Shown in pieces: positions 2,404 to 61,028 of a stretch of 64,000 nucleotides of DNA. Source of the stretch: Panorpa germanica (Eukaryota > Arthropoda > Insecta > Mecoptera > Panorpidae). Within the stretch, counting starts at the first letter, position 1. Every line of letters starts with the position of its first letter. Under the pieces are notes generated by a model. The model saw only the letters and a program-made list of their open reading frames with translations, had not been told where the DNA came from and made no database searches. Made by a program: the position numbers and the translations under genes. The stretch covers positions 25,411,034-25,475,033 of the forward strand of contig OY783205.1 of NCBI GenBank assembly GCA_963678705.1, in the 5' to 3' direction.

Positions 2404-2546
2404 AAGGTTCTAAAAAAACTAAGAAAACTTAAAATTTAATTACATTAAAAATGTTACTGTGAATGACTACGCGTATTGCCATATGCTAAACAATTTAAAC
2501 TAAATACAAAATTAAATTGATAACTAATGAACTTCTTTCATTTCAG

Positions 2547-5500
2547 GTTCAAACGATGTTTGGAACAGATCGTTCCCTGATGCTGCCAATAGTCTTAGAT
2601 ATCGCTAATTTAATCAGGGATTCAGCAAGATCAGAAAACCAACAATCAGAAATGGAACACATGCCAGTACCTCAAGCATTGAGCCGATCTTTCGACGAAG
2701 TTGAAAACATCGAAGACAACAACACACACGTTGGCGAAGTCTTTGTTAATGACGAAACTAAATTTACCTCATCTTTACAAAGTGATTTAAAATTAGGTTA
2801 CAAATTAATTTCGAACAAAGAGAATATAACCACAGTTGATAATTTAGATAAAATTAAAAGTAATAATACAGAATCATTAAGAAAAAAGAAAATTATATAC
2901 AGTGATCAAATTGCTGTACCATCTGATGAAGAACATATATCAGTAACTTTAACATCGATTGTTCCACCAGATGGAAATAGTTCATTTCCGGATGGAAATG
3001 ATACGGAAGTGTTACCACAAGCGGAAGAACTAAGAGCGCTTCATCGTTATTATAGCGACAGGTTTAAACCGGTAAGTGTACTTTAGTGTTAGAATCAGAT
3101 CATGAAAGAAAAATGTTTACTTGTTGTTCCAAAAGAGGAATTTAGTCCAGCCGGAGTAAGTTTTCTATAAATGAAGAATGGGCTTGTGTCCTATGTCTTA
3201 ATTTCTTTAAAAGTGTACTATATATTTATAAAGTGGGTTACTAGAACCTCAAATGTACAATTATCTTTTATTAACTCCTTATATGTTAGGAGATATTAAC
3301 AATTAAAAAAGTCATTTTGTCTCTTTAATTATTAAAGGGATTCAACGTTGTACACATTCCAAATGCATGTGACATCACAATCCTTGTATAAGGTTACCAA
3401 CCTTACAGCTCATAAATCTCTGCTATATGTATTTATATATCAAAATATCAAATATTATTTACAGTTATTTCAAGGAACAATCAAATTCCAATATTATGTC
3501 TGCCTTAGCAGGGTTAAATAAAATAAAAACTTATTATTCTTTGACTTGACTTGATTATTTGACTACCAACAGCTATAGAACATTACCACAGCACTGACCT
3601 ACTCAACAAATAACTGACGTTAAAATGCATTTCACGTCATACAAATATGGCCGACCATTTCTAGCGCTAAAACTACAATTCAAACTTTTAATTGTTATAT
3701 CTCCGTGAACATTTAGATATTTAATAAAATAGACACGTCAATACACATTTATTAACATCAATTTCAATGAAAAATTGAAAAATCGACCACTAAAAAATGA
3801 GGACACAAGCCCATTTAATAAAAGAAGATACAGCTGCATACACTGTCAATGCGTTCCACTGTTTTCCGTGCTGAATAATAGGCTCGAATTCGTTCGAATT
3901 ATAAAAGGTGCCGATTTATATGTAAGAGGCACTAGGTAAAATATATTTACTGAATTTACCGAGATTTTTCTTTAGTTTATTTATTGTTAGTAAATTTACT
4001 GCACTAATTAGAACCCGTTCAAACATTCTTCATTACTATAAAAGAAATAAGTGATTCATATAATTTAAATACAACTATCCATGACAGAGCTCGTGAAATT
4101 AGCATTTTATATTCAATGAATATATTTCAACGATTTCTAATGAGATGAATGTAATGATATGAGTATCATGTTCTTAGATATTCGTAATTACTTATATTAA
4201 TTATATTTTTAACAATGAATTGTGTCTATTCATGTCTAACTAATTAAAGATGCAATTATATTGAGTACAATTTGTGAAATATAGTAAAAGCCTTTCTTTA
4301 AACAATTTAATGTGTTGTTCATATTTATTGATTGGTTTGTAATGTGAAAGCCGTGGTTAGTTAATGAACAACCTGTTAAACACTCAGATAATACGCACAC
4401 ACACACTTTTATGTATATGTATAACACATCACTCAATAAGTTTGTAGGATGATATATATAAATAGTGCCAATATTGACAAATCCATATGTATCAATTCAT
4501 TATTAGATAGAACCAACCTTCAAACGATATGTGTTAAAATTTTATGACAATCCGACCACGACTTTAAAAGTTATAGTGGTTTTAGTGATTGTACTTTTTT
4601 AACTTTCAAAACAATGGAAAAATTTAAAGTTCGTGTGTTGATATAGCATTGTTGTTTAATGTAATTTCAACTATATCTAATACATTGTATGTCAGTTTCA
4701 GAAAGGAGGTGCAGCTCCTCAAAGCAATAGAAGAAAACTAAACGAACATCGAGCAGGATGCGAAAGATTTTCCTCCACTATGTGCCTCTACACGGAGGAT
4801 TACCCCATGTAAGTTTTTAACCGTTTTTGCAGTGCTGCCATCTCTAGTTGAATTGGCTTGTGTCCTATGTCTTAATTTCTATAAAAGTGTACTATATATT
4901 CATAAAGTGGGTTACTAGAACCCCAAATGTTCAATTATTTTTTAATAACTCCTGTTAAGAGATTGTCATTTTGTCTCTTTAATTATTAAAGGGATTCAAC
5001 GTTGTACACATTCCAAGTGCATGTGACATCACAATCCCTGTGTAAGGTTACCAACCTTATAGCTCATAAATCTCTGCTATATGTATTTATACATCAAAAT
5101 ATCAAATATTATTTACAGTTATTTCAAGGAACAATCAAATTTCAATATTATGTCTGCCTTAGCAGGGTTAAATAAAATAAAAACTTATTATTCTTTGATT
5201 TGACTTGATTATTTGACTACCAACAGCTACAGAACATTATCACAGCACTGACCTACTCAACAAATAACTGACGTTAAAATGCATTTCACGTCATACAAAT
5301 ATGGCAGACCATTTCTAGCGCTAAAACTACAATTCAAACTTTTAATTGCTATATCTCCGTCAACATTTAGATATTTAATAAAACTGACCAACTCGAAAAC
5401 TCGACCACTAAAAAATGAGGACACAAGCCCATTCATTAACTAATATATTTTAAACAACGTTTCGTTCATATAGAGATGAAGATATTTATTTTACAGTATT

Positions 5501-20967: not shown

Positions 20968-22001
20968 AATTTTTATAAAGATTGAGAATCTTAAGGATTC
21001 ATTTTCCGTATGTAGATCAAAATGCAATAATCTCGTGATAATGTAAAATATTTTACATAATGTTTAAACATGCTTGAATATTTTCATTGATTATTTTTTA
21101 TGTTTGTTTGTTGAAGAACTAATTAGAGCAATGTAGTTTAGGTAAAAAAGTCAAATTGCTTAATTTTCATGTCTTTAAAACGTTTAAAAACGGTTAAAAC
21201 TTTTATTAGAATGTCACATGCATGTTTAAATTAATTGATTAATTAACTAAAGCGCCATTAATTGCAATAATAAAATAAAACATGAAAAATGATGAAATCT
21301 ACGTAAATATATACCAAAATTGCGAAATATTTAAGATGGATAAGAGGGGAAAACAAAGCAGATGTCTAATAAACCTACAATACAGAAGCTTCATATCATG
21401 ATAAAGTGTCGATGTCGCTTCCAATGTGAGAGCCACCTAAGTCTAATATCTTCTAAACTATACAGAACCGTACGATTATAATTTTAAGCAAGTCATATTG
21501 TACATAAATGTATTAATTGTTTGTTTTCATTTCGTTTTCGTTTTCGTTTTGGAAATAATCTCTCACGCAATCGTTAAATTAATTCAAATTTCATTAGGAA
21601 GGGGAATCAACCTGGTATTGTACTTACATTCAAATCAAAATTAATTGCTACAAATTAATAATATAATAATACATAAATTTCTACTTGACTGGGTAATGAA
21701 CGAAACCGAGTGATTTCTAGTGAATTGTGCTGTGGCAGGTACACTGGCCCGTTGCCCGTTTCGCTGGCTTTGCGGTCAATTCCGTTCTATTCAATTTAAT
21801 CTTGCGAACACAGATACAATTCTTTTTGTTCGTTTTGTAATAAAATTCCCTTTCTTTAAAGAAATTCTATTTAAAGAAAGCAAAAGCGTGAAATAAACTC
21901 AGTTCTAGATCAGTTTCTTAAAGATAAACAGTCCAAAAATGAAGTGTTGACCAATCAAAATATTTCGTGTTTGTTCATTAGTGTGTTAAAAACAATTAAA
22001 A
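20968..22001 (+). other. Upstream region of the acidic secreted protein gene
   Basis: AT-rich. Just before the start codon, AAACTCAGTTC near 21896-21906 could be an arthropod initiator (TCAGT), placing transcription start about 100 nt upstream of the ATG at 22002. No clear TATA box sits 30 nt upstream of it. A three-unit CGTTTT run is at about 21534-21550. Confidence 0.35.
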
Positions 22002-24785
22002 ATGTTTAAAGTTATTTTTATAATTACGTTTGCAGTTTTGTTGCAAAATGTTGTTTTAATTCGCGTTCCCAATTCTTGGGAGAATGAAGAACCTGCACCG
22101 GAAGCTGTTGAAAACGAGGAACCTGCACAGGAAGCAGTAGAAGAGGAAGTGGAAGACACCAACGAGAACTCTAAACGTGATTATTTGAACGAAGAAACTC
22201 CGCAAGACTTTCAAAATGCTTTTAATCCTGATGGTTTCATAGATTTTGAAAAAATAGTGTTCTTAAAACCTTCTCAAAATTTAAAGAAAGTTAAATATCC
22301 AATTCCAAATAATGAGGAAATTAAAATAAATCCAGAAGCGTTCTTTCCTTTAAAGAACACTATAAATAATTTCAAAGAAAGTCAGCTGAAACATTTTACG
22401 AATTCGAAAGAAGAATACCCGCAAACGACAACACCAAGACCGGAAGAAAAGAAGCCGGAAGAATACAAAATATATTTAAATGAAGAACAAAAGTTTGACA
22501 AACAAAATACTGATTTTAACAACGATTTTAGGAAGTTTGAAGCAGAAAATATTCATGATGACAGTTCCAGTGAAGATGTGAATGATGAAAATGAAAATGA
22601 GGAAGTAAAAAATGATAGCAATAGTGAAAATATATCGGAAGATCAAGAAGAAGATGACGAAGAAGAAGAATTTGTGCCAATAAAAATGCACGCGCAAGTA
22701 CGACATTCTGAAACCAACAGTTATCATCCCACGCATGAGTTTGAAGATCCGAGGGTGAAGGAAAAGTTGATTTTAGATAAAAGTCATGTTGTTTACTCGG
22801 AAGAAGGGTACGAAGATCTGGGATACGATCACGCAGGACATGAAAAGGAAGCTGCTCACGTTGAGGGCGATGCAGATTTATTAATTAAGAAAAAGCTACC
22901 AATAACTCTGCAAGATTCACCAAAATCTGAAGAGAAAAGAAGTGATAACATAAGACGAAAGAAAAGATCAAGTGATGATGAATTAGAAAAGGAAGTGGTA
23001 GATGATCTCGTTCTAACAGAATTTGATGTGTATCCAAAGCGAAAAGAAGACAGCGAAAATCTGGAAGTTAAATATCCTTACTACAAGTCAACTGAGAATG
23101 TTTTGTCCGCTAAAAGGTACGCAGAAAATTTAGAAAACATCCCATTAAAAACTTCAGATAACAGTTTCTACGATTCTCGACAAAAACGTTGCGCAGAAAT
23201 CGAATCTTCCATAGATCCTATACCAGACAGAATAAAAGACAGACTAAATAGAAGACCAAAACGTGAAACCGAACAAACTAAACGTCTTGATGGACTTGGC
23301 GATAAAATAGATTGCTTTAAAGAAAAATATTTTGGAGCAGAACCGTTGGACAGCCCAATCTTTATCGAAGAATTAATAGAGCAACCTCAAAATCCGTTTC
23401 TAAGACAACGAAAAAATAAAAATACTAAAAGAAATATTGGTAGTATAGAACGACCAAAGTATTTGCAATTGGAGTCGGTACTTAACCCTCAACTTGGTGT
23501 TTACTTTGATGTTATGGAGACAATAAAAGCAGATTTATTGAAAAGAAAGATGGAGGAGTTATCTAAATTTGGTTTCAAAGATAAAAGAGAATCACCGGCT
23601 AGAAAACCTAGATGGCAACGGAAGTTAGAGCTTGAAGCATTGAAGGATGTCGAAAATGAAACACCTGTTGAAGAAGAATCCACTGCAAATGAAGATGTAT
23701 CGGAAACACCTCAAGTAATGCATTACTTAGAACCGGAAGAGAATGAACGTTTGATGAACAATGATGAAGTAAAGGTATATTTAAATCATCAGCCTGAAAC
23801 TGAAGATGAAAATAAGGTAAAAATAAATGAAGATTCTGAAATAAATCATGAAGAAAAGTCTGGTAATCATAATTATGATCTTAACAATGTAAATCAAGAT
23901 ACAAATGAAGACAAGCCTTTACCTTTGTCACTTGAAAATGTTCATTATTTGTATAAAAATGATAAAGTTAATGAAAATGAAGATCAAGAAGAAGTTAAGC
24001 AAGATATACATAATAATAATCACTATATACTTAGCGAAGATAACAAAAATGACGACAACGACCATATAAAAGTTTACGAGTTGAATGTAGGCCAAGATAA
24101 AGTTGAAAGTACAAATGATTCCAATATCAAGAACAGAGATCAATACCCAACGAACGAAGAAAGCACAGAAACAAAAAGAAATAACGACGAGAAAGTTGTA
24201 ATCAAAAAAAGACCGGATAATATTGAGGATATAATTAAAATTGAGGAATATAAATCAAATGTAGAAGGAAACGTTGTTGATAATCGACGAAAGGAACCGC
24301 GATATCAGGATATTAAACCGTTTGAAATTAATTTTAATATCCCGATATTTGACATTAATAAATATTTACCGAAAATATATGAATTTGTTGTGACACCAAG
24401 GAATTACAGCAGTAGGTTTGATTCTTCGAAATACAGGCTACCGTTAGCTAAATACCTCACAACAAGAGTACCATATTCTGAGGCGGAAGATAGCAATAAC
24501 AATGCAACAACGAACCAGAAGAACCAGTTGATGAACCAAGAATATATAGAAAAACCGGAGGAATTGAAGATGAAACACACTGTTGAGATACCACAACATT
24601 TAGTAGGGGAAAATAATAATTTAGAAAAAAATGAAGATACGTATGAAAAAGAAGGTGAAACGAATGCAAATGAAGAAGAGGAGGAGGAAGAAAAGCAAAT
24701 TATAGATAGACGAATAGATAGCAATGTTGAGGAAGAAGATAAAAGTAAACAGGAAGATGATACGGAACAAATGGAAGACACTTAA
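22002..24785 (+). CDS. Secreted, highly acidic Glu/Asn-rich proprotein, unknown function
   Basis: Single uninterrupted exon, 927 aa. Residues 1-20 (MFKVIFIITFAVLLQNVVLI) form a signal peptide. A short internal repeat follows (ENEEPAPEAVENEEPAQEAV). The rest is mostly disordered and dominated by Glu, Asp, Asn and Lys, with acidic runs near 220-226 and close to the C terminus. Three furin-type sites are visible: RRKKR (318-322), RQKR (393-396) and RPKR (419-421 region), suggesting processing in the secretory pathway. Only two cysteines are seen (397 and 438), bracketing the last site, so they could join fragments by a disulphide. No known domain is recognised. The start is the first ATG, directly before the signal peptide. 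AATAAA at 24959 is a likely polyadenylation signal. It may be a cuticle, silk, gland or matrix protein, but this is a guess. Confidence 0.85.
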   Translation: MFKVIFIITFAVLLQNVVLIRVPNSWENEEPAPEAVENEEPAQEAVEEEVEDTNENSKRDYLNEETPQDFQNAFNPDGFIDFEKIVFLKPSQNLKKVKYPIPNNEEIKINPEAFFPLKNTINNFKESQLKHFTNSKEEYPQTTTPRPEEKKPEEYKIYLNEEQKFDKQNTDFNNDFRKFEAENIHDDSSSEDVNDENENEEVKNDSNSENISEDQEEDDEEEEFVPIKMHAQVRHSETNSYHPTHEFEDPRVKEKLILDKSHVVYSEEGYEDLGYDHAGHEKEAAHVEGDADLLIKKKLPITLQDSPKSEEKRSDNIRRKKRSSDDELEKEVVDDLVLTEFDVYPKRKEDSENLEVKYPYYKSTENVLSAKRYAENLENIPLKTSDNSFYDSRQKRCAEIESSIDPIPDRIKDRLNRRPKRETEQTKRLDGLGDKIDCFKEKYFGAEPLDSPIFIEELIEQPQNPFLRQRKNKNTKRNIGSIERPKYLQLESVLNPQLGVYFDVMETIKADLLKRKMEELSKFGFKDKRESPARKPRWQRKLELEALKDVENETPVEEESTANEDVSETPQVMHYLEPEENERLMNNDEVKVYLNHQPETEDENKVKINEDSEINHEEKSGNHNYDLNNVNQDTNEDKPLPLSLENVHYLYKNDKVNENEDQEEVKQDIHNNNHYILSEDNKNDDNDHIKVYELNVGQDKVESTNDSNIKNRDQYPTNEESTETKRNNDEKVVIKKRPDNIEDIIKIEEYKSNVEGNVVDNRRKEPRYQDIKPFEINFNIPIFDINKYLPKIYEFVVTPRNYSSRFDSSKYRLPLAKYLTTRVPYSEAEDSNNNATTNQKNQLMNQEYIEKPEELKMKHTVEIPQHLVGENNNLEKNEDTYEKEGETNANEEEEEEEKQIIDRRIDSNVEEEDKSKQEDDTEQMEDT

Positions 24786-44639: not shown

Positions 44640-45117
44640 AAAATTTTGTGATATACTTTTTTGTAGATAGCAGTCACCTTTTTCCAGTTAATACTAACCT
44701 TCAAAAGACAACTGTTAAAATTTCATGATATTCTATTCAGTAGTTTGTGAGTTATTGTGCTAAGAGTGACGCTACTTTTATAATTTTCAAAACAATGGTA
44801 AAATCTGAATTTCGTGTGTTGATAAAGCATTGGTTTTTAATGGAATAAAATACCGTTCAAGCGAAGCAATGGCTTGAAAAGTGTTATGGGGACTCGGCTT
44901 CATCAGAAACAACAATAAAACGTTGGTTTGCTGACTTCAAACGTGGTCGTAGAGACACCGATGATGCAGAATGCAGTGGACGTCCAAATGAGGCGGTAAC
45001 ACCAGAAAACATAAAAAAAATCCACAAAATCGTTTGGAATGATCGAAAAGTGAAGTTGCGTGAGTTAGCTGACATCGTAAAGATATCAAAAGAACATGTT
45101 GGCTTTATATTGCATGT
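44640..45117 (+). pseudogene. mariner transposase N-terminal relic
   Basis: From the ATG at 44795 it reads MVKSEFRVLIKHWFLME, stop, then TVQAKQWLEKCYGDSASS and on to KEHVGFILH at 45113: the two helix-turn-helix DNA-binding regions of an irritans-type mariner transposase. There is an in-frame stop at codon 18 and it is cut off before the catalytic DD34D domain. The right break coincides with the start of a foldback-element fragment. Confidence 0.85.
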
Positions 45118-45312
45118 TAATTGTATTATCTATAATTTTTGTTAATTACTTTTCGTTGTAACTTTTATAATACAAATGTTATAAGCAAATATATAACTTA
45201 AATTGTGTAATACTACATTACGGTTGTCTTTAAATTAAGTCATATTTTTTCTTATAACTTTTTTGTAGTAAAAGTTACAACAAAAAGCGATTAACGAAAT
45301 TCGTAAATTTTA
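45118..45312. mobile_element. Foldback element fragment in the mariner relic
   Basis: Arms GTAACTTTTATAATACAAAT and AACTTTTTTGTAGTAAAAGT / TTACAACAAAAAG are inverted to one another and match the element at 9871-10195. It directly follows the truncated transposase frame, so it either inserted there or joined by deletion. Confidence 0.55.
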
Positions 45313-50437: not shown

Positions 50438-50766
50438 TGTACGAAATAAAACCATGCGAGTATTTGTAGATTGAATAATTATTCAATTGTTTAATGATAA
50501 AATAATTTTACACTTTTTAATATAAATTTAACCACAAATTCTTGTAATATAAAATGGTTGCGAAACATGCTACGACAGTGCAAAAGCCAAAACACGAGTG
50601 ACTCGAATGCCATACGGCTGTAGCGTGCACAGCAGTCGTCGTTGTGTTGCCCAACACGTCGCTGTGTTGCCCTGAGTAAGATTTCTACCAGAGACAACAA
50701 TACAATATTAAACTAGAATGTCAACAGAGACACATTTTATGTTCTGTGCTAATTTTGTACTGAACA
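50438..50766 (-). repeat. 3' LTR of the BEL/Pao element
   Basis: 329 bp, TGTACGAAAT...TACTGAACA on the plus strand (TG...CA ends). No difference from the other LTR was found when read against it. The 69-aa frame inside each LTR is not considered a gene. Confidence 0.95.
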
Positions 50767-50997
50767 TAAATTACCAGCCAGCAGAACGTAGCTGATCCCA
50801 CAACCAACTTAAAATATATATAAAAATACATTAATACATAGAGCTACATAAATTTACAAACTTCTTAAATCTATGATAGTCTACATAATTGTATGAGAAT
50901 AATATAAAATAAAACAAAATAACAATTATTCTAAAGATAACAGAAAACGTAATTAACATTTTAGCATACATTATCAATTGCATAATGTACACAACAA
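50767..50997 (-). other. BEL/Pao 3' untranslated stretch
   Basis: 231 nt between the stop codon and the 3' LTR, AT-rich, with no clear purine-rich priming tract. Confidence 0.6.
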
Positions 50998-53900
50998 TCA
51001 ATTCAGTGGTAATCTACACAATTTTGTGATGGGTCTGTTGTAGATCTTATCACCAATTTTTATTTCCGCCACTCTCACCTTTCCATCTTTACCAAAAAAG
51101 ACCTTTGTGATTCTGGCCATTGGCCACTTTAATGGGGGTGAGTTTAGATTCTTTACAATAACTAAATCACCTTCTTTCAGGTTCTCATTAGCATATTTCC
51201 ACTTGGGACGGCTCTGAAGCTGTGTGAGATAATCCTTAGACCAAGCTTGCCAAAAGTCTTGTTTTAGTTTTTTAACAATATTCCAAAACTTAAGACGATT
51301 GACTGGTACCTCTGTTAAATTAACTTCAGGGTATTCAATCAGAGCAGTGCCAATTAGAAAATGTGCTGGAGTCAAATACTTATATTCATTTGGGCTTAGT
51401 GGAAGCAGTGGTCTTGAGTTTAGCACACCTTCAATCTGTATGACAACTGAATTTAATTCTTCATAAGTTAAGGCCAAATTACCAACTACTCTCTTAAGGT
51501 GGTGCTTCACACTTTTGACCCCTGCTTCCCATATACCACCAAATTCAGGAGCATAACTGGGTATAAACATAAATTTTATATATAGATTATTACAAAAACT
51601 TATAACATTATTTCTATGAGACTTATTAGTCTGTAAATTATACAACTCTTTTAATTCATTAGCAGCACCCTTGAATGTTTTAGCATTGTCACAATAAATT
51701 TTAGTAGGCATGCCTCGTCTAGAAATAAAACGATTGAGACATGCCAAGAATGTTTCAGTTCTTAAATCAGAAACCACTTCCATGTGTATGGCCTTTGTAG
51801 AAAAGCAAACAAACAATGAAATGTAACCTTTTGTAATCAATGGTTTACGTATGCGAGCTATCTTTATGTTAAAAGGTCCACAAAAATCTACACCTACATG
51901 CTGAAATGGTCTTGTAGCTGTAACTCTGTCAGCTGGCAAAGAACCCATCAATTGTTTAGCAGATTCAGCCTTCAATCGTGAACATATAACACATTTGTAT
52001 AGTACCTTTTTGACCTCCCGTATGCCATTGATAATCCAGAACTTTTGAGACAAGGAGCTGAGTACTAATCTAGCACCAGCATGGAGCAAACGTAAGTGCT
52101 CATTTTTGATTATGATAGAAGTGATATTGTTGTCCTTTGGCAGTATGACTGGGTGCATTTTATCTTTTGCAATGCCTGCATTTTGCAATCTGCCACCAAC
52201 ACGAATTAAACCAGTGCTGTCTATGAAAGGGTGGAGATTACCTATACCGGTCTTGATAATGATACCACCTAAGAGACATTTTATTTCTTTAAAAAATATT
52301 TGCCTTTGAACTGAGCGAATGATAATTAATAAAGAATTATGAAGTTCTTGTGGAGATAAATGTCCACAAATATTATTTTTAGAAATAGTAAGATAAGAAC
52401 AAATTGAACTGTGTACTGCCTTTTTACAATTATTAAAGAATCTATACACATAAGCTAATACACGCTGTAGCTTATTGATATTGGAGAATTTTTTAAACAA
52501 GTCTAGCATTAACGGTGCTTGTTCGACTTCAATGTTACAAACATTACAGTTTTTATCTTCATCGTCTGATAGAAGTACTGTATTTAAATCAAAATAATGA
52601 TCATGTTTAAAATGAGAATTGGATAGATACTGGGGACCGTTCCACCAAAGATTTTGATTTTTTAAGTGTTGTGGTTCTATACCACGAGAAATTATATCAG
52701 CTGGGTTATCAGCTGATTTTACATAGTACCAAGAGAATTTATCTGTGAGCTCTGTTATTTTCTTTACTCTGTTATTAACATAGATATTGGTTTTTAATTT
52801 GTCCGCTTGAATCCAAGCAAGGACTATTTTGGAATCACAATAAAGGAAAAGTCTATGTTCCAATCTAGTTTTGAGTAAATTACTAACTCTAACCGCAAGT
52901 TGTGCCAACAAAACTGCACTATTTAGCTCTAGTTGGGGTATTGTAAGTACCTTACCTAGTGGAGCCACACGAGACTTGGCACAAATTAATTTTGTTTTTA
53001 CGTTGTCATTTGCTGTAACGGTTCTTAAATATAGGCAGCACCCGTACGCCTTCATAGATGCGTCTGCATAGCCTATTAATTCTGCAGTGACAAAATTTTC
53101 CTCCTTTATAAGTCGATCTATTGAAATGCTGTCTGCTATCTTTAGACCATTAAGGAACTTTTCCCACATCTGTAATTGTTTGTCAGGCAGCGGTGCGTCC
53201 CAATCTATTTTCAAAAACCAAAGCTCTTGCATGATTAACTTGGCAACTACAATTATAGGGCCAATCAATCCTAACGGGTCAAATAAAGTCCCAATAAAAC
53301 TAAGCACTTTTCTTTTAGTATTCAAATTGTTACTATTCGTGTTAGGACATTTAAAAGTAAATGTATCCAAAATAACATTGTATTTTAGACCTAATGTTTT
53401 AATAATGGCTGATTTATTCAAATCTAATTCATTGATATATTTTTTATCACTAGAGATGTCGTCGAGCACTGGGGGATGATTGGAAGACCATTTGTGTAAT
53501 TTAAAATTACCTAATTGTAACAAACCAATTAATTGAGACTTTAATTCAGATAACTCTTCCACGTCATCGCACCCAACTATGACATCATCAACATACGTAT
53601 TATGGCACATTGCTCTCGCTGCGAGAGGATATTTATGTTTGTAGCGATGGGCAAGTTCTATGAGACATCGTGTGGCCAAAAAGGTAGAAGATTTGAGTCC
53701 ATATGTTACAGTTTTTAATTGCAAACAACTGATGGGCTTACCTGGATCATCTCTCCATAAGATATTTTGTAAGACATTGTAAGTGTCATTTGTGAGAATA
53801 CAGCGGAACATTTTTTCTATGTCACAGACAATTGTGTACACATAAGTTCTAAACAGTAGGAGAATATCGAAGAGCTCGCCTTGAACCACAGGACCATTCA

Positions 53901-56178
53901 GCATAACATCGTTGAGAGAAATCTTATTTTTAGAACGCATGCTTCCATCAAAGACCACACGCAATTTAGTAGTTTTGCTATCATCATTTGTAACTGCATG
54001 ATGTGCTAAAAAATAATTAGGAGTATTATAAACATCATAAGAATTTATGTCTATTTCCCTGGCATGTCCCATCTCTATATACTGATCAATGAATTTTTTA
54101 TACACCTTCAATAGTGAAGGATTTCGTTTAAATCTGTTTTCTAACACACAGAATCTTTGCAGGGCGACTGAGAAAGAATCCCCCAATTCCAGTTCATTTA
54201 CTGGGCTGACTAATGGCAAATCTACAGTAAAAGTATTATTTTCAAGTAGTACTGAATTTTTAAAAATATGTTCAGCCTTTAAATATTCCTCAGTAAACTT
54301 GTCTGTCTTTTCTGGGACCTTCTCAGTCATCCAAAATTGCCCCATAACATTCTCAAGGGTTGTATGGTCAGAAATGGCAAAATTAGATACTATAATATTA
54401 CTTGAATAATTATTTTGATTTTGAAACATTTTTGGCTCATTAATAACATTATAATTAAATTGATTATGCAGTTTACCTGCAACTACATATCCAAATGTAG
54501 TGTTCTGTAAAACTGAGCCATTATTTAATTTAATACAGCCACCTAATAGAATGGCAAAATATACATCCGCACCCAATAGCAATGATATTTTTGAGGGTAC
54601 ATTATACTGCTCATCAGCTAGCTTAATATTTTTGGGAAAAATAACTTTGGATGTGTCAATAAAAATTTGAGGCAAATGCGTAGTGATAGATTCAACTACA
54701 TGACAATTCACTTTGTGATTAATATTTCTGTTGTAATTAGACTGTATGTTTATAATTGCTGAGTGATATAATTTTGTGGCTTTATTGCCTATACCAATTA
54801 TTTTACTAGGATGAGTGTTTGTGCGTAAACGCAATTCTTTTAAGAGTTCAGCAGTCACTAATGATGCTTGACTACCGCTATCGAGCAATGCACGAACTAG
54901 AAACTCGCGACCAAAATTGTCAACAATTTTTACCTTCATAGTAGGCAGCAATATGGTACCCCCCAAGCTATCATTGCTACAGCACATTACAACTGGAGAT
55001 TCAGTTGTCTTGCCAGCCAGCGAACCAGCATCTGTTTTATCACATAACAATTTGCTATGCATGCCTTTACATTTATGACATTTATAATTATTCTCAAGGG
55101 AGCACCTGCCACTATGGGCTTTTAAACATAGCGAACATAATTTATGTTCTTGAACAAATGAATTACGCGACTCTAAAGGAGCCATTTTAAATTTTGGACA
55201 TCTAAAAATGGGATGGTCCATATTACAATATCTACATGCTAAATTGTAGCGAGTAGTGACATTGGAAACTCTCGAGTACGAATACTCTTTATAATTTTTG
55301 TCATTTGACATACTTTTATATGGTGAGCTATCCTCAAGTGCAATCGCACGTTTTTCTAAAAATGATATAAATTCTGCCATAGTAGGCAGTTTGTCTACAT
55401 TTCTTTCCATATGGAAATTGCGACTAGTTAATAAATCTAGCTTTCTACATAATATTGAGATTAGAATCATATCCCATTTGTCTACAGGCTCATCAAGATT
55501 TTTTAACGCTTGTAATTGCTGTTTTACTTGACATAAAAAAGCCCTTATAGCCATTGCAGTACCCTTCTGCATGTTTGGAATATCAAGTAATATATTTATA
55601 TGATTAGTAATTAATCGCGCCTTATTATCATACCGCGCTAACAATAAATCAAGAGCCTCTTTATATGAGCTGTTCACAAGCGGCAAATTTATAATTATTG
55701 AGAGAGCCTCGTCAAGGAGATACTTTCTTAAATAAAAAAGTCTCTGTACATCGGACAGTGATGCATTATTGTGAACAACTGCTTGGAAGAGCTCATAAAA
55801 GGGCCTAAACCTGGTTATATCCTTGCCATCGAAGGTTGGAATTTCCACCGCTGGAAGCTTGGATGCCACTAAGCTAGGACAAGTAGGCCTATTAACTTCT
55901 TTTAACTTGGTGATGCTGGCATTTAACTTAGCTAAAATATTAAAGTATTTTTCTTCTACATCCTCGATGTCTTCATCATCCTGTTCATCAATTTCTAAAA
56001 TACTGGATTGCGTGAGCTCGTACGTGTGATAGGTAGCCATCAACTTTTCTTTCTTCGCCTCCAGCAGCTCTACCGTACCGGATTCGAGGGCCCTTGCGTC
56101 GCTGACATAATTGTCCATTCTTGAAATCGAACCTTTTGCAGTCGTCCGCGCCGTTTTAAGCCTCTTCAACCCCTCCAT
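50998..56178 (-). CDS. gag-pol: BEL/Pao gag-pol polyprotein, intact
   Basis: 1726 aa without stop or frameshift. Gag: about 1-310 (PVEIPTFDGKDITRFRPFYE region). Three CCHC zinc knuckles: Cys315-Cys318-His322-Cys327, Cys348-Cys351-His355-Cys359 and Cys367-Cys370-His374-Cys379. Aspartic protease: DSGS at 433-436. Reverse transcriptase: about 700-900, catalytic Asp786 and YVDD 862-865. RNase H: about 1030-1170 with Asp1039, Glu1084, Asp1115. Integrase: zinc motif His1361/His1366/Cys1396/Cys1399, then the DDE triad Asp1431, Asp1497, Glu1551; a C-terminal domain follows to 1726. Gag and pol share one frame, so no frameshifting is needed. Function: reverse transcription and integration of the element in cytoplasmic particles and nucleus. 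The preserved frame and matching LTRs imply recent activity. Confidence 0.97.
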   Translation of the reverse strand: MEGLKRLKTARTTAKGSISRMDNYVSDARALESGTVELLEAKKEKLMATYHTYELTQSSILEIDEQDDEDIEDVEEKYFNILAKLNASITKLKEVNRPTCPSLVASKLPAVEIPTFDGKDITRFRPFYELFQAVVHNNASLSDVQRLFYLRKYLLDEALSIIINLPLVNSSYKEALDLLLARYDNKARLITNHINILLDIPNMQKGTAMAIRAFLCQVKQQLQALKNLDEPVDKWDMILISILCRKLDLLTSRNFHMERNVDKLPTMAEFISFLEKRAIALEDSSPYKSMSNDKNYKEYSYSRVSNVTTRYNLACRYCNMDHPIFRCPKFKMAPLESRNSFVQEHKLCSLCLKAHSGRCSLENNYKCHKCKGMHSKLLCDKTDAGSLAGKTTESPVVMCCSNDSLGGTILLPTMKVKIVDNFGREFLVRALLDSGSQASLVTAELLKELRLRTNTHPSKIIGIGNKATKLYHSAIINIQSNYNRNINHKVNCHVVESITTHLPQIFIDTSKVIFPKNIKLADEQYNVPSKISLLLGADVYFAILLGGCIKLNNGSVLQNTTFGYVVAGKLHNQFNYNVINEPKMFQNQNNYSSNIIVSNFAISDHTTLENVMGQFWMTEKVPEKTDKFTEEYLKAEHIFKNSVLLENNTFTVDLPLVSPVNELELGDSFSVALQRFCVLENRFKRNPSLLKVYKKFIDQYIEMGHAREIDINSYDVYNTPNYFLAHHAVTNDDSKTTKLRVVFDGSMRSKNKISLNDVMLNGPVVQGELFDILLLFRTYVYTIVCDIEKMFRCILTNDTYNVLQNILWRDDPGKPISCLQLKTVTYGLKSSTFLATRCLIELAHRYKHKYPLAARAMCHNTYVDDVIVGCDDVEELSELKSQLIGLLQLGNFKLHKWSSNHPPVLDDISSDKKYINELDLNKSAIIKTLGLKYNVILDTFTFKCPNTNSNNLNTKRKVLSFIGTLFDPLGLIGPIIVVAKLIMQELWFLKIDWDAPLPDKQLQMWEKFLNGLKIADSISIDRLIKEENFVTAELIGYADASMKAYGCCLYLRTVTANDNVKTKLICAKSRVAPLGKVLTIPQLELNSAVLLAQLAVRVSNLLKTRLEHRLFLYCDSKIVLAWIQADKLKTNIYVNNRVKKITELTDKFSWYYVKSADNPADIISRGIEPQHLKNQNLWWNGPQYLSNSHFKHDHYFDLNTVLLSDDEDKNCNVCNIEVEQAPLMLDLFKKFSNINKLQRVLAYVYRFFNNCKKAVHSSICSYLTISKNNICGHLSPQELHNSLLIIIRSVQRQIFFKEIKCLLGGIIIKTGIGNLHPFIDSTGLIRVGGRLQNAGIAKDKMHPVILPKDNNITSIIIKNEHLRLLHAGARLVLSSLSQKFWIINGIREVKKVLYKCVICSRLKAESAKQLMGSLPADRVTATRPFQHVGVDFCGPFNIKIARIRKPLITKGYISLFVCFSTKAIHMEVVSDLRTETFLACLNRFISRRGMPTKIYCDNAKTFKGAANELKELYNLQTNKSHRNNVISFCNNLYIKFMFIPSYAPEFGGIWEAGVKSVKHHLKRVVGNLALTYEELNSVVIQIEGVLNSRPLLPLSPNEYKYLTPAHFLIGTALIEYPEVNLTEVPVNRLKFWNIVKKLKQDFWQAWSKDYLTQLQSRPKWKYANENLKEGDLVIVKNLNSPPLKWPMARITKVFFGKDGKVRVAEIKIGDKIYNRPITKLCRLPLN

Positions 56179-56833
56179 CTTGCTTAGATGATAAACTCGT
56201 ACTTGTATGTTAGATGAAACGTGGATGAGAAAACTAATCCAGCTTAATCCAGGAATTTAGCAATTTTTTAATAAATCGGTACTTGTAGATAATGATAATA
56301 GAATTGTACCTTGATGAGTAAAAAGGTATTTTACTCTCTTCTAGGTTCCTTGCACCCCTTTCCGTATAATAAATTTCTTGAACAATTTTTCTTGAAATGT
56401 GAACATGTAGTATCCAAAATATATGTGAATCCGCTTAAATCAAGCGTTACATTACCCAATCGATGTCAATTGATGACTTGCCAGGCCGCCATAGGGTAAA
56501 TGTAAAGAAATAGCTTGCACATGTGCCGATTACTACACAGATGTAACCTCAAAACACCACGAATTCACACGCGGTTAATAATGGTTTGTAAGACCAAATT
56601 TGTTTTAATTCTCGAAGCAGCTTCGCATTTACGAATTAAAACCTTCTTGAAATGTAATTGTAAAATCCAAATCCTCCGTGAATCCGCCAAAATAGAGCGT
56701 CCCAATTACCCATTCAATGGCAATCACCAAGGGGCAAATGTAAAAAAAAAACGCCAAAAACTCAATGAAAAACACACGCGGTTAATAAACTCGAAGGATC
56801 GGCTTTGTAAGGCATCGAAGGACCAGCTTCGCA
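56179..56833 (-). other. BEL/Pao leader with primer-binding site and internal duplication
   Basis: 655 nt between 5' LTR and ATG. Close to the LTR, on the minus strand, TGGTCCTTCGATGCC (plus 56812-56826) begins with TGG about 7 nt inside and is the likely tRNA primer-binding site. The leader holds two diverged direct units: TTCTTGAAATGT (about 56389 and 56644), CACACGCGGTTAATAA (56566 and 56773) and CAGCTTCGCAT-TACGAA-TAAAACC (about 56619 and 56825). The outer copy of the last block lies across the LTR edge. Confidence 0.7.
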
Positions 56834-57162
56834 TGTACGAAATAAAACCATGCGAGTATTTGTAGATTGAATAATTATTCAATTGTTTAATGATAAAATA
56901 ATTTTACACTTTTTAATATAAATTTAACCACAAATTCTTGTAATATAAAATGGTTGCGAAACATGCTACGACAGTGCAAAAGCCAAAACACGAGTGACTC
57001 GAATGCCATACGGCTGTAGCGTGCACAGCAGTCGTCGTTGTGTTGCCCAACACGTCGCTGTGTTGCCCTGAGTAAGATTTCTACCAGAGACAACAATACA
57101 ATATTAAACTAGAATGTCAACAGAGACACATTTTATGTTCTGTGCTAATTTTGTACTGAACA
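56834..57162 (-). repeat. 5' LTR of the BEL/Pao element
   Basis: 329 bp, direct repeat of 50438-50766. It should contain the promoter of the minus-strand gag-pol transcript. It is followed by the second ACTGG duplication. Confidence 0.95.
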
Positions 57163-57868
57163 ACTGGTTTCAATTAAATATTTTCGTATATAGGTATCCT
57201 TTTGATAATTTTCTTTTTGCAATAGTTACAGAAAAGATTCTTTTATATACACCTAGTTTTTGAAAGCCGTGTCACATTTTTTAATAGTTAAAAGTTATAT
57301 TAGGTGGTGAAATTGAGCTAAAAATTATAATTTGTATGGAAAATGACTATTTTTAATCATGTATAAAAAGAAAACTAGGAATCCTAGATCTCTAAAATTT
57401 TGAGACAGCATGTATTTTTATTATTTGTATTGACCCTAGAATTTCACAAAGTTTTCATCATTTACGTTAACGTCCTATACCTCCTTAATACTTCATAAAT
57501 GTATATAACAATAATAAATCATCTAGTAAAATAAAAAAAAAACATTTTAAATAATTTTTAAATATTGGTTATTACTAATTAACAAATAATTTGTATACTT
57601 CTTAATAAAATCAAGGATTTGAACGCAACCAAGGTGGCCAACGTATAATTAACAAACGTAGTTGATTTTTTAATAAATAGTTAAATTTATTGAACAATTA
57701 AAGAAGCGACGCCCGAAGCGACGGGACGACCCTGACGATGCTGTATCTGATAATTATTATAACTTTAAATAAATAATAAATATTTTATTTATTAAGGTGT
57801 ATACTGTATTTGCATGAATATTTAACTTTAATCGCTTAGCAATATTTTATGCGATGAACTATTATATA

Positions 57869-60955: not shown

Positions 60956-61028
60956 GCCGAAATAGCTCAGTTGGGAGAGCGTTAGACTGAAGATCTAAAG
61001 GTCCCTGGTTCGATCCCTGGTTTCGGCA
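60956..61028 (+). tRNA. tRNA-Phe: tRNA-Phe (anticodon GAA)
   Basis: 73 nt, intron-less cloverleaf: acceptor GCCGAAA/TTTCGGC with discriminator A, D-arm GCTC...GAGC, anticodon stem TTAGA/TCTAA with loop CTGAAGA (GAA), T-loop TTCGATC. The B box GGTTCGATCCC and A box are intact. In the T stem, CCTGG faces CCTGG, so pair 51-63 is U-U instead of a Watson-Crick pair. A T-rich tail (TTTTCTTTTT) right after the gene serves as Pol III terminator. Confidence 0.93.

What the first reader, a model, noticed from the sequence alone, without database searches (positions are those of the whole stretch)
50438..57162. Very young, apparently intact BEL/Pao retrotransposon
The sequence shows two 329-bp LTRs with no difference found by eye, a perfect 5-bp duplication and a 1726-codon frame with all catalytic residues (protease DSGS, RT Asp786/YVDD, RNase H D-E-D, integrase HHCC and D-D-E). 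Family knowledge says LTRs are identical at insertion and then diverge, so the insertion is recent and the lineage may be active.
Basis: partly seen in the sequence, partly recalled or inferred. Interest (0 to 1): 0.75.

Follow-up and report, generated by a model that had tools for sequence, protein, structure and literature searches.

The report
Recently spread BEL/Pao retrotransposon in scorpionfly
A scorpionfly chromosome carries a freshly inserted, complete-looking copy of a virus-like jumping element that belongs to a large set of nearly identical copies in the same genome, so the family spread recently; it is a good example of a known kind of element rather than a new kind.

Summary
A 6,725-bp BEL/Pao LTR retrotransposon lies on the minus strand at 50438-57162: two 329-bp LTRs with 0 differences, duplication ACTGG, one 1,726-aa Gag-Pol frame whose catalytic acids and integrase zinc ligands are conserved in 70 of 70 aligned proteins. 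The host is Panorpa germanica, chromosome 2. Of 30 sampled copies 27 had both LTRs in hand and all 27 pairs are identical; of ten further copies 9 are; a low-identity ten is mixed. This is a recent burst; present-day activity is not shown. Added anatomy: a tRNA-Tyr-like primer site 8 nt outside the LTR (18 of 18 nt at an aberrant junction), no polypurine tract beside the 3' LTR, a duplicated leader, and chimeric copies. tRNA-Tyr priming is already reported for the BEL/Pao element Achilles. New member of a known kind; interest moderate.

The parts
56834..57162 (-). 5' LTR (329 bp)
   Evidence: identical to 50438-50766, 0 differences
50438..50766 (-). 3' LTR (329 bp)
   Evidence: the 363-bp 3' end has 40 of 40 scored matches at 99-100% in the genome
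50433..50437 (.). target-site duplication ACTGG, low-coordinate side
57163..57167 (.). target-site duplication ACTGG, high-coordinate side
56826..56833 (-). 8-nt spacer TGCGAAGC between LTR end and primer site
   Evidence: spacer and primer site follow the LTR end in 26 of 30 copies searched by exact string
56815..56825 (-). primer-binding site, 11-nt contiguous match to the complement of the tRNA-Tyr 3' end
   Evidence: 18 of 18 nt at junctions in L070; tRNA end from passages, name tRNA-Tyr recalled
56644..56849 (-). leader unit 1 (last 16 bp of the LTR, spacer, primer site and about 180 bp)
   Evidence: self-alignment with unit 2: 86% over 35 bp and 75% over 83 bp
56389..56643 (-). leader unit 2 (diverged tandem copy of unit 1; boundary approximate)
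50998..56178 (-). single gag-pol frame, 1,726 aa
55414..55830 (-). Gag part, Pfam DUF1759 (aa 117-255)
   Evidence: E 2e-28
55042..55236 (-). triple Cys-His box (aa 315-379); last ligand Cys379 where the 69 others have His
54469..54888 (-). aspartic protease, LLDSGS...LLG, Pfam DUF1758 (aa 431-570)
53518..53811 (-). reverse transcriptase match RVT_1 (aa 790-887), YVDD at 862-865
   Evidence: E 1e-4, below Pfam's cut-off
52831..53319 (-). Pfam Peptidase_A17 (Pao family), aa 954-1116
   Evidence: E 5e-48
51967..52116 (-). integrase HHCC zinc-binding domain (aa 1355-1404)
51664..51915 (-). integrase core match (aa 1422-1505), below Pfam's cut-off; D65D53E with E at aa 1551
51010..51285 (-). Pfam DUF5641, C-terminal (aa 1632-1723)
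   Evidence: E 7e-32
50767..50786 (-). block TTCTGCTGGCTGGTAATTTA at the position of the polypurine tract; not polypurine
   Evidence: one change in 20 nt in the deleted relative, where sequence further upstream differs

Best explanation
A recently inserted, structurally complete BEL/Pao retrotransposon that belongs to a very young burst in Panorpa germanica. Inferred cycle: transcription from the LTR; one Gag-Pol polyprotein cut by its aspartic protease; tRNA-Tyr primes the minus strand 8 nt downstream of the LTR; integrase inserts the cDNA with a 5-bp target duplication after the extra nucleotides at the right end are removed. Template switching between co-packaged RNAs makes deleted, inverted and chimeric copies and reshuffles LTRs and leaders against a nearly uniform pol. 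Shown: anatomy, copy set, identical LTR pairs, target duplications, tRNA-matching junction, chimera. Inferred: protein activities, tRNA identity in this host, end trimming, present-day activity.
For: Window LTRs identical with a perfect duplication; catalytic acids and HHCC ligands 70 of 70; Pfam BEL/Pao domain set. 119 of 119 scored RT matches 97-100% identical without stops; 71 have the window's 1,752-codon stop-to-stop frame, 16 have 1,740, 93 have at least 1,725. 405 LTR starts within 3 mismatches against 0 for the reversed control; of the 100 listed, 94 fall into 47 pairs. Sample 1 (30 of the 39 other places): 27 have both LTRs in hand, 27 of 27 pairs identical with perfect duplications. 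Spread sample: 9 of 10 pairs identical, 10 of 10 duplications. No position in the first 1,482 bp at which the window differs from all of 20 copies. Gag differences among 23 copies: 14 synonymous, 1 non-synonymous distinct change, expected synonymous share 0.216, P 6e-9. Primer site: 11-14 nt runs in ten copies, 18 of 18 at L070 junctions.
Against: Sample 1 was chosen by likeness to the window's 3' end; the spread ten are ranks 1, 3, 10, 19, 25, 32, 46, 54, 74 and 89 of 119, so neither is random. One spread copy has 2 substitutions and 1 indel between its LTRs. The ten lowest-ranked copies are mixed: 9 had both LTRs found, 4 pairs identical, one with 2 substitutions and a perfect duplication, one with 15 substitutions and 8 gaps, three with 1-2 gaps or changes at uncertain boundaries; perfect duplications in 4 of 10. 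The C21:12421889 chimera has 3 LTR differences in a 4-nt patch. Three sampled copies have a (TA)n repeat on the 5' side, where a perfect duplication says little. Integrase C-terminal changes ran the other way (0 synonymous, 3 non-synonymous; 6 distinct other copies). The window's primer site matches only 11 contiguous nt, and an exact 21-mer of the recalled tRNA-Tyr T arm is absent from this genome. No canonical polypurine tract. No expression or polymorphism data.
Confidence: 0.9

Rival explanations
1. The element is old and its LTRs look identical because gene conversion between copies or between the two LTRs keeps homogenising them.
For: Copies are many and similar and exchange between family members is evident.
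Against: LTRs differ between copies (24 distinct LTR sequences among 40 identical pairs) yet match within a copy; target duplications, which LTR conversion would not renew, are perfect in 27 of 27 and 10 of 10, three of them in (TA)n repeats; 5 of 100 listed exact LTR starts unpaired.
Confidence: 0.04
2. The insertion is recent but this copy and its sisters are passengers: the family has stopped moving, for example silenced by piRNAs.
For: No activity data could be read here; LTR identity only dates insertions. The pooled estimate allows about 3,000 to 100,000 generations at a recalled rate.
Against: Many open frames and no stop in the gag piece of the copies tested.
Confidence: 0.35
3. The copies multiplied mainly as parts of larger host DNA duplications, not by reverse transcription.
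For: One locus on C4 holds a tandem and inverted array of a related deleted element.
Against: Perfect 5-bp duplications at 37 of 37 sampled copies with both LTRs; their 35-bp 5' flanks differ from one another except that the most similar trio lies in (TA)n repeats.
Confidence: 0.02
4. The frame is a domesticated host gene kept for a host function.
For: Open frame, mostly synonymous differences in part of gag.
Against: Full LTR anatomy, target duplication and many dispersed near-identical copies.
Confidence: 0.01

Closest known systems
Achilles, BEL/Pao element of the olive fruit fly Bactrocera oleae (PMC4580426; passages and section 17 read)
   Same: BEL/Pao; single Gag-Pol frame, no env detected; primer site for tRNA-Tyr; repeats in the 5' untranslated leader; DD(52)E against DD(53)E here; ATTAAA but no AATAAA in the LTR in both (here).
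   Different: Achilles LTR 672-674 bp, frame starting only at 2588, isolated copy with stops and without RNase H motifs; primer site at 677-690, next to the LTR, rather than 8 nt away; third Cys-His motif with HH. No sequence comparison was run.
Lepidopteran BEL/Pao proteins (Cydia, Choristoneura, Euphydryas and others) and an unnamed contig protein P0002
   Same: Shared domain set; 57-62% identity over aa 700-1120 in the named Lepidoptera among the first 31 rows, 68% for P0002; 55-60% over the whole protein for the eight unnamed relatives measured.
   Different: Well under 80% identity; third Cys-His box ends in His in the 69 aligned relatives but Cys here. Their LTRs and primer sites could not be read.
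Sinbad and Pao (PMC554778; passages read)
   Same: Triple Cys-His box, LLDSGS protease (Sinbad), YVDD, DAS RNase H motif, long D-E spacing.
   Different: DD(49)E in Sinbad and DD(45)E in Pao, against DD(53)E reported there for BEL and found here.

Membership tests
BEL/Pao (Belpaoviridae) | BEL/Pao pol homology and domain order protease-RT-RNase H-integrase | tested here: met
   Pfam A17, DUF1759, DUF1758, integrase zinc-binding, DUF5641 above cut-off; RVT_1 and rve below their cut-offs; 2,724 proteins at E <= 0.001
BEL/Pao (Belpaoviridae) | one to three genes between LTRs of 0.2-1.2 kb, element 4.2-10 kb (ICTV profile PMC8742986, read whole) | tested here: met
   329-bp LTRs, 6,725 bp, one frame
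BEL/Pao (Belpaoviridae) | triple Cys-His box, third finger CX2-4CX3HX4H (PMC554778, passages) | tested here: inconclusive
   three fingers present; the third is CX2CX3HX4C, last ligand Cys not His, in the window and in the one other copy examined. The same paper gives exceptions in Tas and Suzu
BEL/Pao (Belpaoviridae) | expanded integrase D-E spacing (45-53; PMC554778, passages) | tested here: met
   53
BEL/Pao (Belpaoviridae) | 18-nt primer site for tRNA-Arg or tRNA-Gly (ICTV profile) | tested here: not met
   matches the tRNA-Tyr end instead; not a bar, since Achilles is filed as BEL/Pao with tRNA-Tyr
BEL/Pao (Belpaoviridae) | polypurine tract of about 10 nt next to the 3' LTR (ICTV profile) | tested here: not met
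   ...GCTGGCTGGTAATTTA precedes the LTR in 30 of 30 copies (the query that chose them included this stretch). The filing rests on pol homology, not on this
Named BEL/Pao superfamilies (BEL, Pao, Sinbad, Suzu, Tas, Dan, Flow; names from PMC3118150 abstract and passages, PMC554778 passages and recall) | place in the RT tree with reference elements | not tested
   reference sequences were not at hand; the D53E spacing hints at BEL only
Active transposon family | new insertions or transcripts now | not testable with these tools
   no RNA, alternate haplotype or population data held

The most novel reading that the evidence does not exclude
A BEL/Pao lineage in mid-burst whose cDNA ends are unusual: the minus strand starts at tRNA-Tyr 8 nt outside the LTR, the plus strand starts at a conserved block that is not a polypurine tract, and integrase or another step trims the long right end; frequent template switching, in part at the duplicated LTR-end/primer-site repeat, keeps producing new leader, LTR and deletion subfamilies that share one pol.
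Probability: 0.3. Interest if true: 0.55.

Novelty: new member of a known kind. Interest (0 to 1): 0.42.

Why it matters
A large, nearly uniform set of young copies with open frames in a scorpionfly allows direct tests of how a BEL/Pao burst starts and stops, in an insect order for which one search of the held library found no paper with the words Mecoptera, retrotransposon and BEL together. The aberrant junctions bear on primer and cDNA ends; the ICTV profile calls replication of this group poorly understood. It is not a new kind of element.

Tried and rejected
Solved structures: 0 sequence matches to the protein at E up to 1. Viral contigs: 2 stretches matched a pattern, none encodes a relative. 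RNA fold at the two primer sites: z 0.06 and -0.23, no signal. X enrichment: 15 of 119 RT matches on C21, P 0.45. Self-priming by the element's own RNA (Tf1-like, recalled) was considered and set aside once 18 of 18 nt of the tRNA end appeared at junctions. Host tRNA-Tyr gene: an exact 21-mer from recall had 0 matches and a shorter 15-mer did not complete, so the host gene was not seen. Recent horizontal transfer was not pursued: in the 120 listed rows the named relatives are lepidopteran, with one beetle (Diabrotica), but the best named one is 62% identical over aa 700-1120. The number of the deleted relative's copies was not obtained.

Rows dropped: sample 1 is 30 of the 39 other places; 3 of the 30 had no 5' LTR in the fetched piece and are described separately. 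They and the ten low-ranked copies are left out of the pooled date, which uses the window, 27 and 10 pairs and ignores one indel. Gag test: 23 of 30 copies usable. Private-change test: 20 of 30 aligned in one piece. Integrase test: 8 sequences passed; by the deletions they include the window itself and one copy twice.
Full report
What is there. The element spans 50438-57162 and reads on the minus strand. Both LTRs are 329 bp and identical, the target duplication is ACTGG, and the ends are TGT...ACA. One frame of 1,726 codons carries the Pfam set of BEL/Pao elements: DUF1759, DUF1758, Peptidase_A17, integrase zinc-binding and DUF5641 above cut-off, RVT_1 and rve as weaker matches below cut-off. 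In an alignment with 69 database proteins of at least 1,650 aa the protease, RT and RNase H acids, the integrase D-D-E and the HHCC ligands are conserved in 70 of 70; other motif letters vary (S434 54, G435 57, Y862 69, V863 62 of 70); the integrase spacing is D65D53E. No other frame of 100 codons or more was listed on the minus strand and the frame ends 231 bp before the 3' LTR, so there is no env-like gene. One departure: the third Cys-His finger ends in Cys379 where the 69 others have His; the one other copy examined also has Cys.

Host. The window is chromosome 2, 25411034-25475033. The deposited assembly is of one haplotype with quality value 59.9; an alternate haplotype exists but is not held here.

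Copies. The 3' end has 40 of 40 scored matches at 99-100% (1,258 candidates). A 340-aa RT piece has 119 of 119 scored matches at 97-100% (93 at 100%) without stops, from 1,347 candidates; 71 lie in the same 1,752-codon stop-to-stop frame as the window, 16 in one of 1,740, and 93 of 119 in frames of at least 1,725. The tool scores only the best candidates, so these are lower bounds. The 40-mer at the LTR start occurs 405 times within 3 mismatches, control 0. Of the 100 places listed, all exact and on C1-C10, 94 form 47 same-strand pairs, 39 of them 6,343-6,441 bp apart and 8 between 5,527 and 9,677; 5 are unpaired and 1 is cut by the end of the list. Mates with mismatches would not be listed, so even the 5 need not be solo LTRs.

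Age. Sample 1 was 30 of the 39 other places, with their ends fetched: 27 have both LTRs in the fetched pieces, 27 of 27 pairs are identical and 27 of 27 have perfect 5-bp duplications, although LTRs differ between copies by 0-2 changes from the window's. Sample 2 was 20 places. Ten were spread down the ranking (ranks 1 to 89 of 119): 10 of 10 have both LTRs and perfect duplications and 9 of 10 have identical pairs; the other has 2 substitutions and 1 indel. Three of these 37 copies have a (TA)n repeat on the 5' side, where a perfect duplication says little; otherwise the 35-bp 5' flanks differ. The other ten were the lowest-ranked. In 8 of 10 the matched part of the 5' LTR is only 74-86% like the window's, so boundaries are uncertain, yet their RT is 97-99% identical. 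In that set 9 had both LTRs found: 4 pairs are identical, one has 2 substitutions, one 15 substitutions and 8 gaps, three 1-2 gaps or changes; 4 of 10 show a perfect duplication. Pooling the window, 27 and the spread 10 gives 2 substitutions in 12,502 sites, about 28,000 generations (3,000 to 100,000) at a recalled insect rate of 2.9e-9; the samples are not random. The single window pair alone only says under about 1.6 million generations. There is no position in the first 1,482 bp at which the window differs from all of 20 copies; its nearest copy differs at 5.

Selection. In 166 gag codons of 23 copies there are 14 synonymous and 1 non-synonymous distinct changes from the window (P 6e-9), as expected if copies descend from functioning sources; the changes are shared among copies, so the P value treats each distinct change once. 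The last 101 codons (stop included) gave 0 synonymous and 3 non-synonymous changes in six distinct other copies, two of them in one codon. The first result is strong, the second small and contrary.

Priming. The LTR is followed by TGCGAAGC and then TGGTCCTTCGA, the start of the complement of the tRNA-Tyr 3' end. That end, AUCCGGCUCGAAGGACCA, was read in a beetle small-RNA table under a miRNA label, and a fragment with 17 of the 18 letters in a table of tRNA fragments in disease (passages); that it belongs to tRNA-Tyr is recalled, and agrees with the Tyr assignment in Achilles. Nine of the ten low-ranked copies match 12-14 nt in a row and one 11. At two places of the C4 array (L070) the LTR end and the spacer are followed by all 18 nt and then by an internal part of the deleted relative. 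The two places are 97% alike over 171 bp, so they are probably copies of one event. Such a junction is what plus-strand strong-stop DNA, copied from the tRNA to its usual stop, would leave after a faulty transfer; a plain deletion just behind a full 18-nt site would look the same. A copy on C6 that lacks its 5' LTR begins at element position 336-340, where the primer site starts at 338, joined to an inverted 127-bp piece of gag; this fits a minus strand that reached the primer site and folded back. An exact 21-mer of the recalled tRNA T arm was not found in the genome, so the host gene itself is unseen.

Polypurine tract. The 3' LTR is preceded by TTCTGCTGGCTGGTAATTTA. In the deleted relative this block has one change in 20 nt at 3 of the 4 LTR starts in L070 (the fourth follows a gag junction), while sequence further upstream differs. 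Two low-ranked copies keep AATTTA with another stretch before it. The block may start the plus strand; that is inference.

Leader and template switching. The leader is a diverged tandem duplication starting at the last 16 bp of the LTR. One copy (C7) has a further unit of 206 bp and another (C6:17803221) is rearranged at the LTR-end/primer repeat. Two copies have lost about 350-420 bp of the 3' coding part. C21:12421889 is a chimera: LTR and leader start 97% like the window, gag and a further piece 82-85%, the 3' part 99.8%, with AAGTT on both sides.

Known context. The ICTV profile (PMC8742986, whole text) gives tRNA-Arg or tRNA-Gly and a polypurine tract of about 10 nt. Achilles (PMC4580426, passages and section 17) already has tRNA-Tyr and leader repeats, which its authors call common in BEL/Pao. 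So tRNA-Tyr and leader repeats are not new; the 8-nt offset and the missing polypurine tract depart from these two texts but were not surveyed across BEL/Pao. Protein identity to the best hit is 68% over aa 700-1120, below the 80% level quoted in the Achilles paper; that level is normally applied to DNA (recalled). One search for Mecoptera, retrotransposon and BEL together found no paper.

Verdict. The finding is right and stronger than stated: a young, complete-looking copy within a large recent burst. Whether the family moves today was not testable here.

Noticed in passing
L070 (C4:16436200-16446100): Tandem and inverted array of an internally deleted relative (about 81-90% to the window element over most matched parts) with reverse-transcription-like junctions.
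   Followed up: partly
G000 C21:12421889 (L071): Chimeric element, 5' part with pieces of the deleted relative and 3' part from the window's family, with a perfect AAGTT duplication and a 3-difference patch between its LTRs.
   Followed up: partly
RT matches: 16 of 119 have a stop-to-stop frame of 1,740 instead of 1,752 codons, consistent with the 36-bp shift seen in several copies: a common in-frame deletion subfamily.
   Followed up: no
window 2499-3086 (+): 195-aa open stretch with a Neurotrophin 1 N-terminal match (PF24103, E 1.4e-9), probably an exon of a Spaetzle/neurotrophin-like gene.
   Followed up: no
window 21990-24785 (+): 931-codon open stretch without a Pfam match at E 0.01.
   Followed up: no
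window 44849-45145 (+): Weak matches to homeodomain-like and Mos1-type helix-turn-helix models (below cut-off), perhaps a mariner remnant.
   Followed up: no
window 60956-61028 (+): tRNA-Phe gene about 3.8 kb from the insertion; whether other copies lie near tRNA genes was not tested.
   Followed up: no
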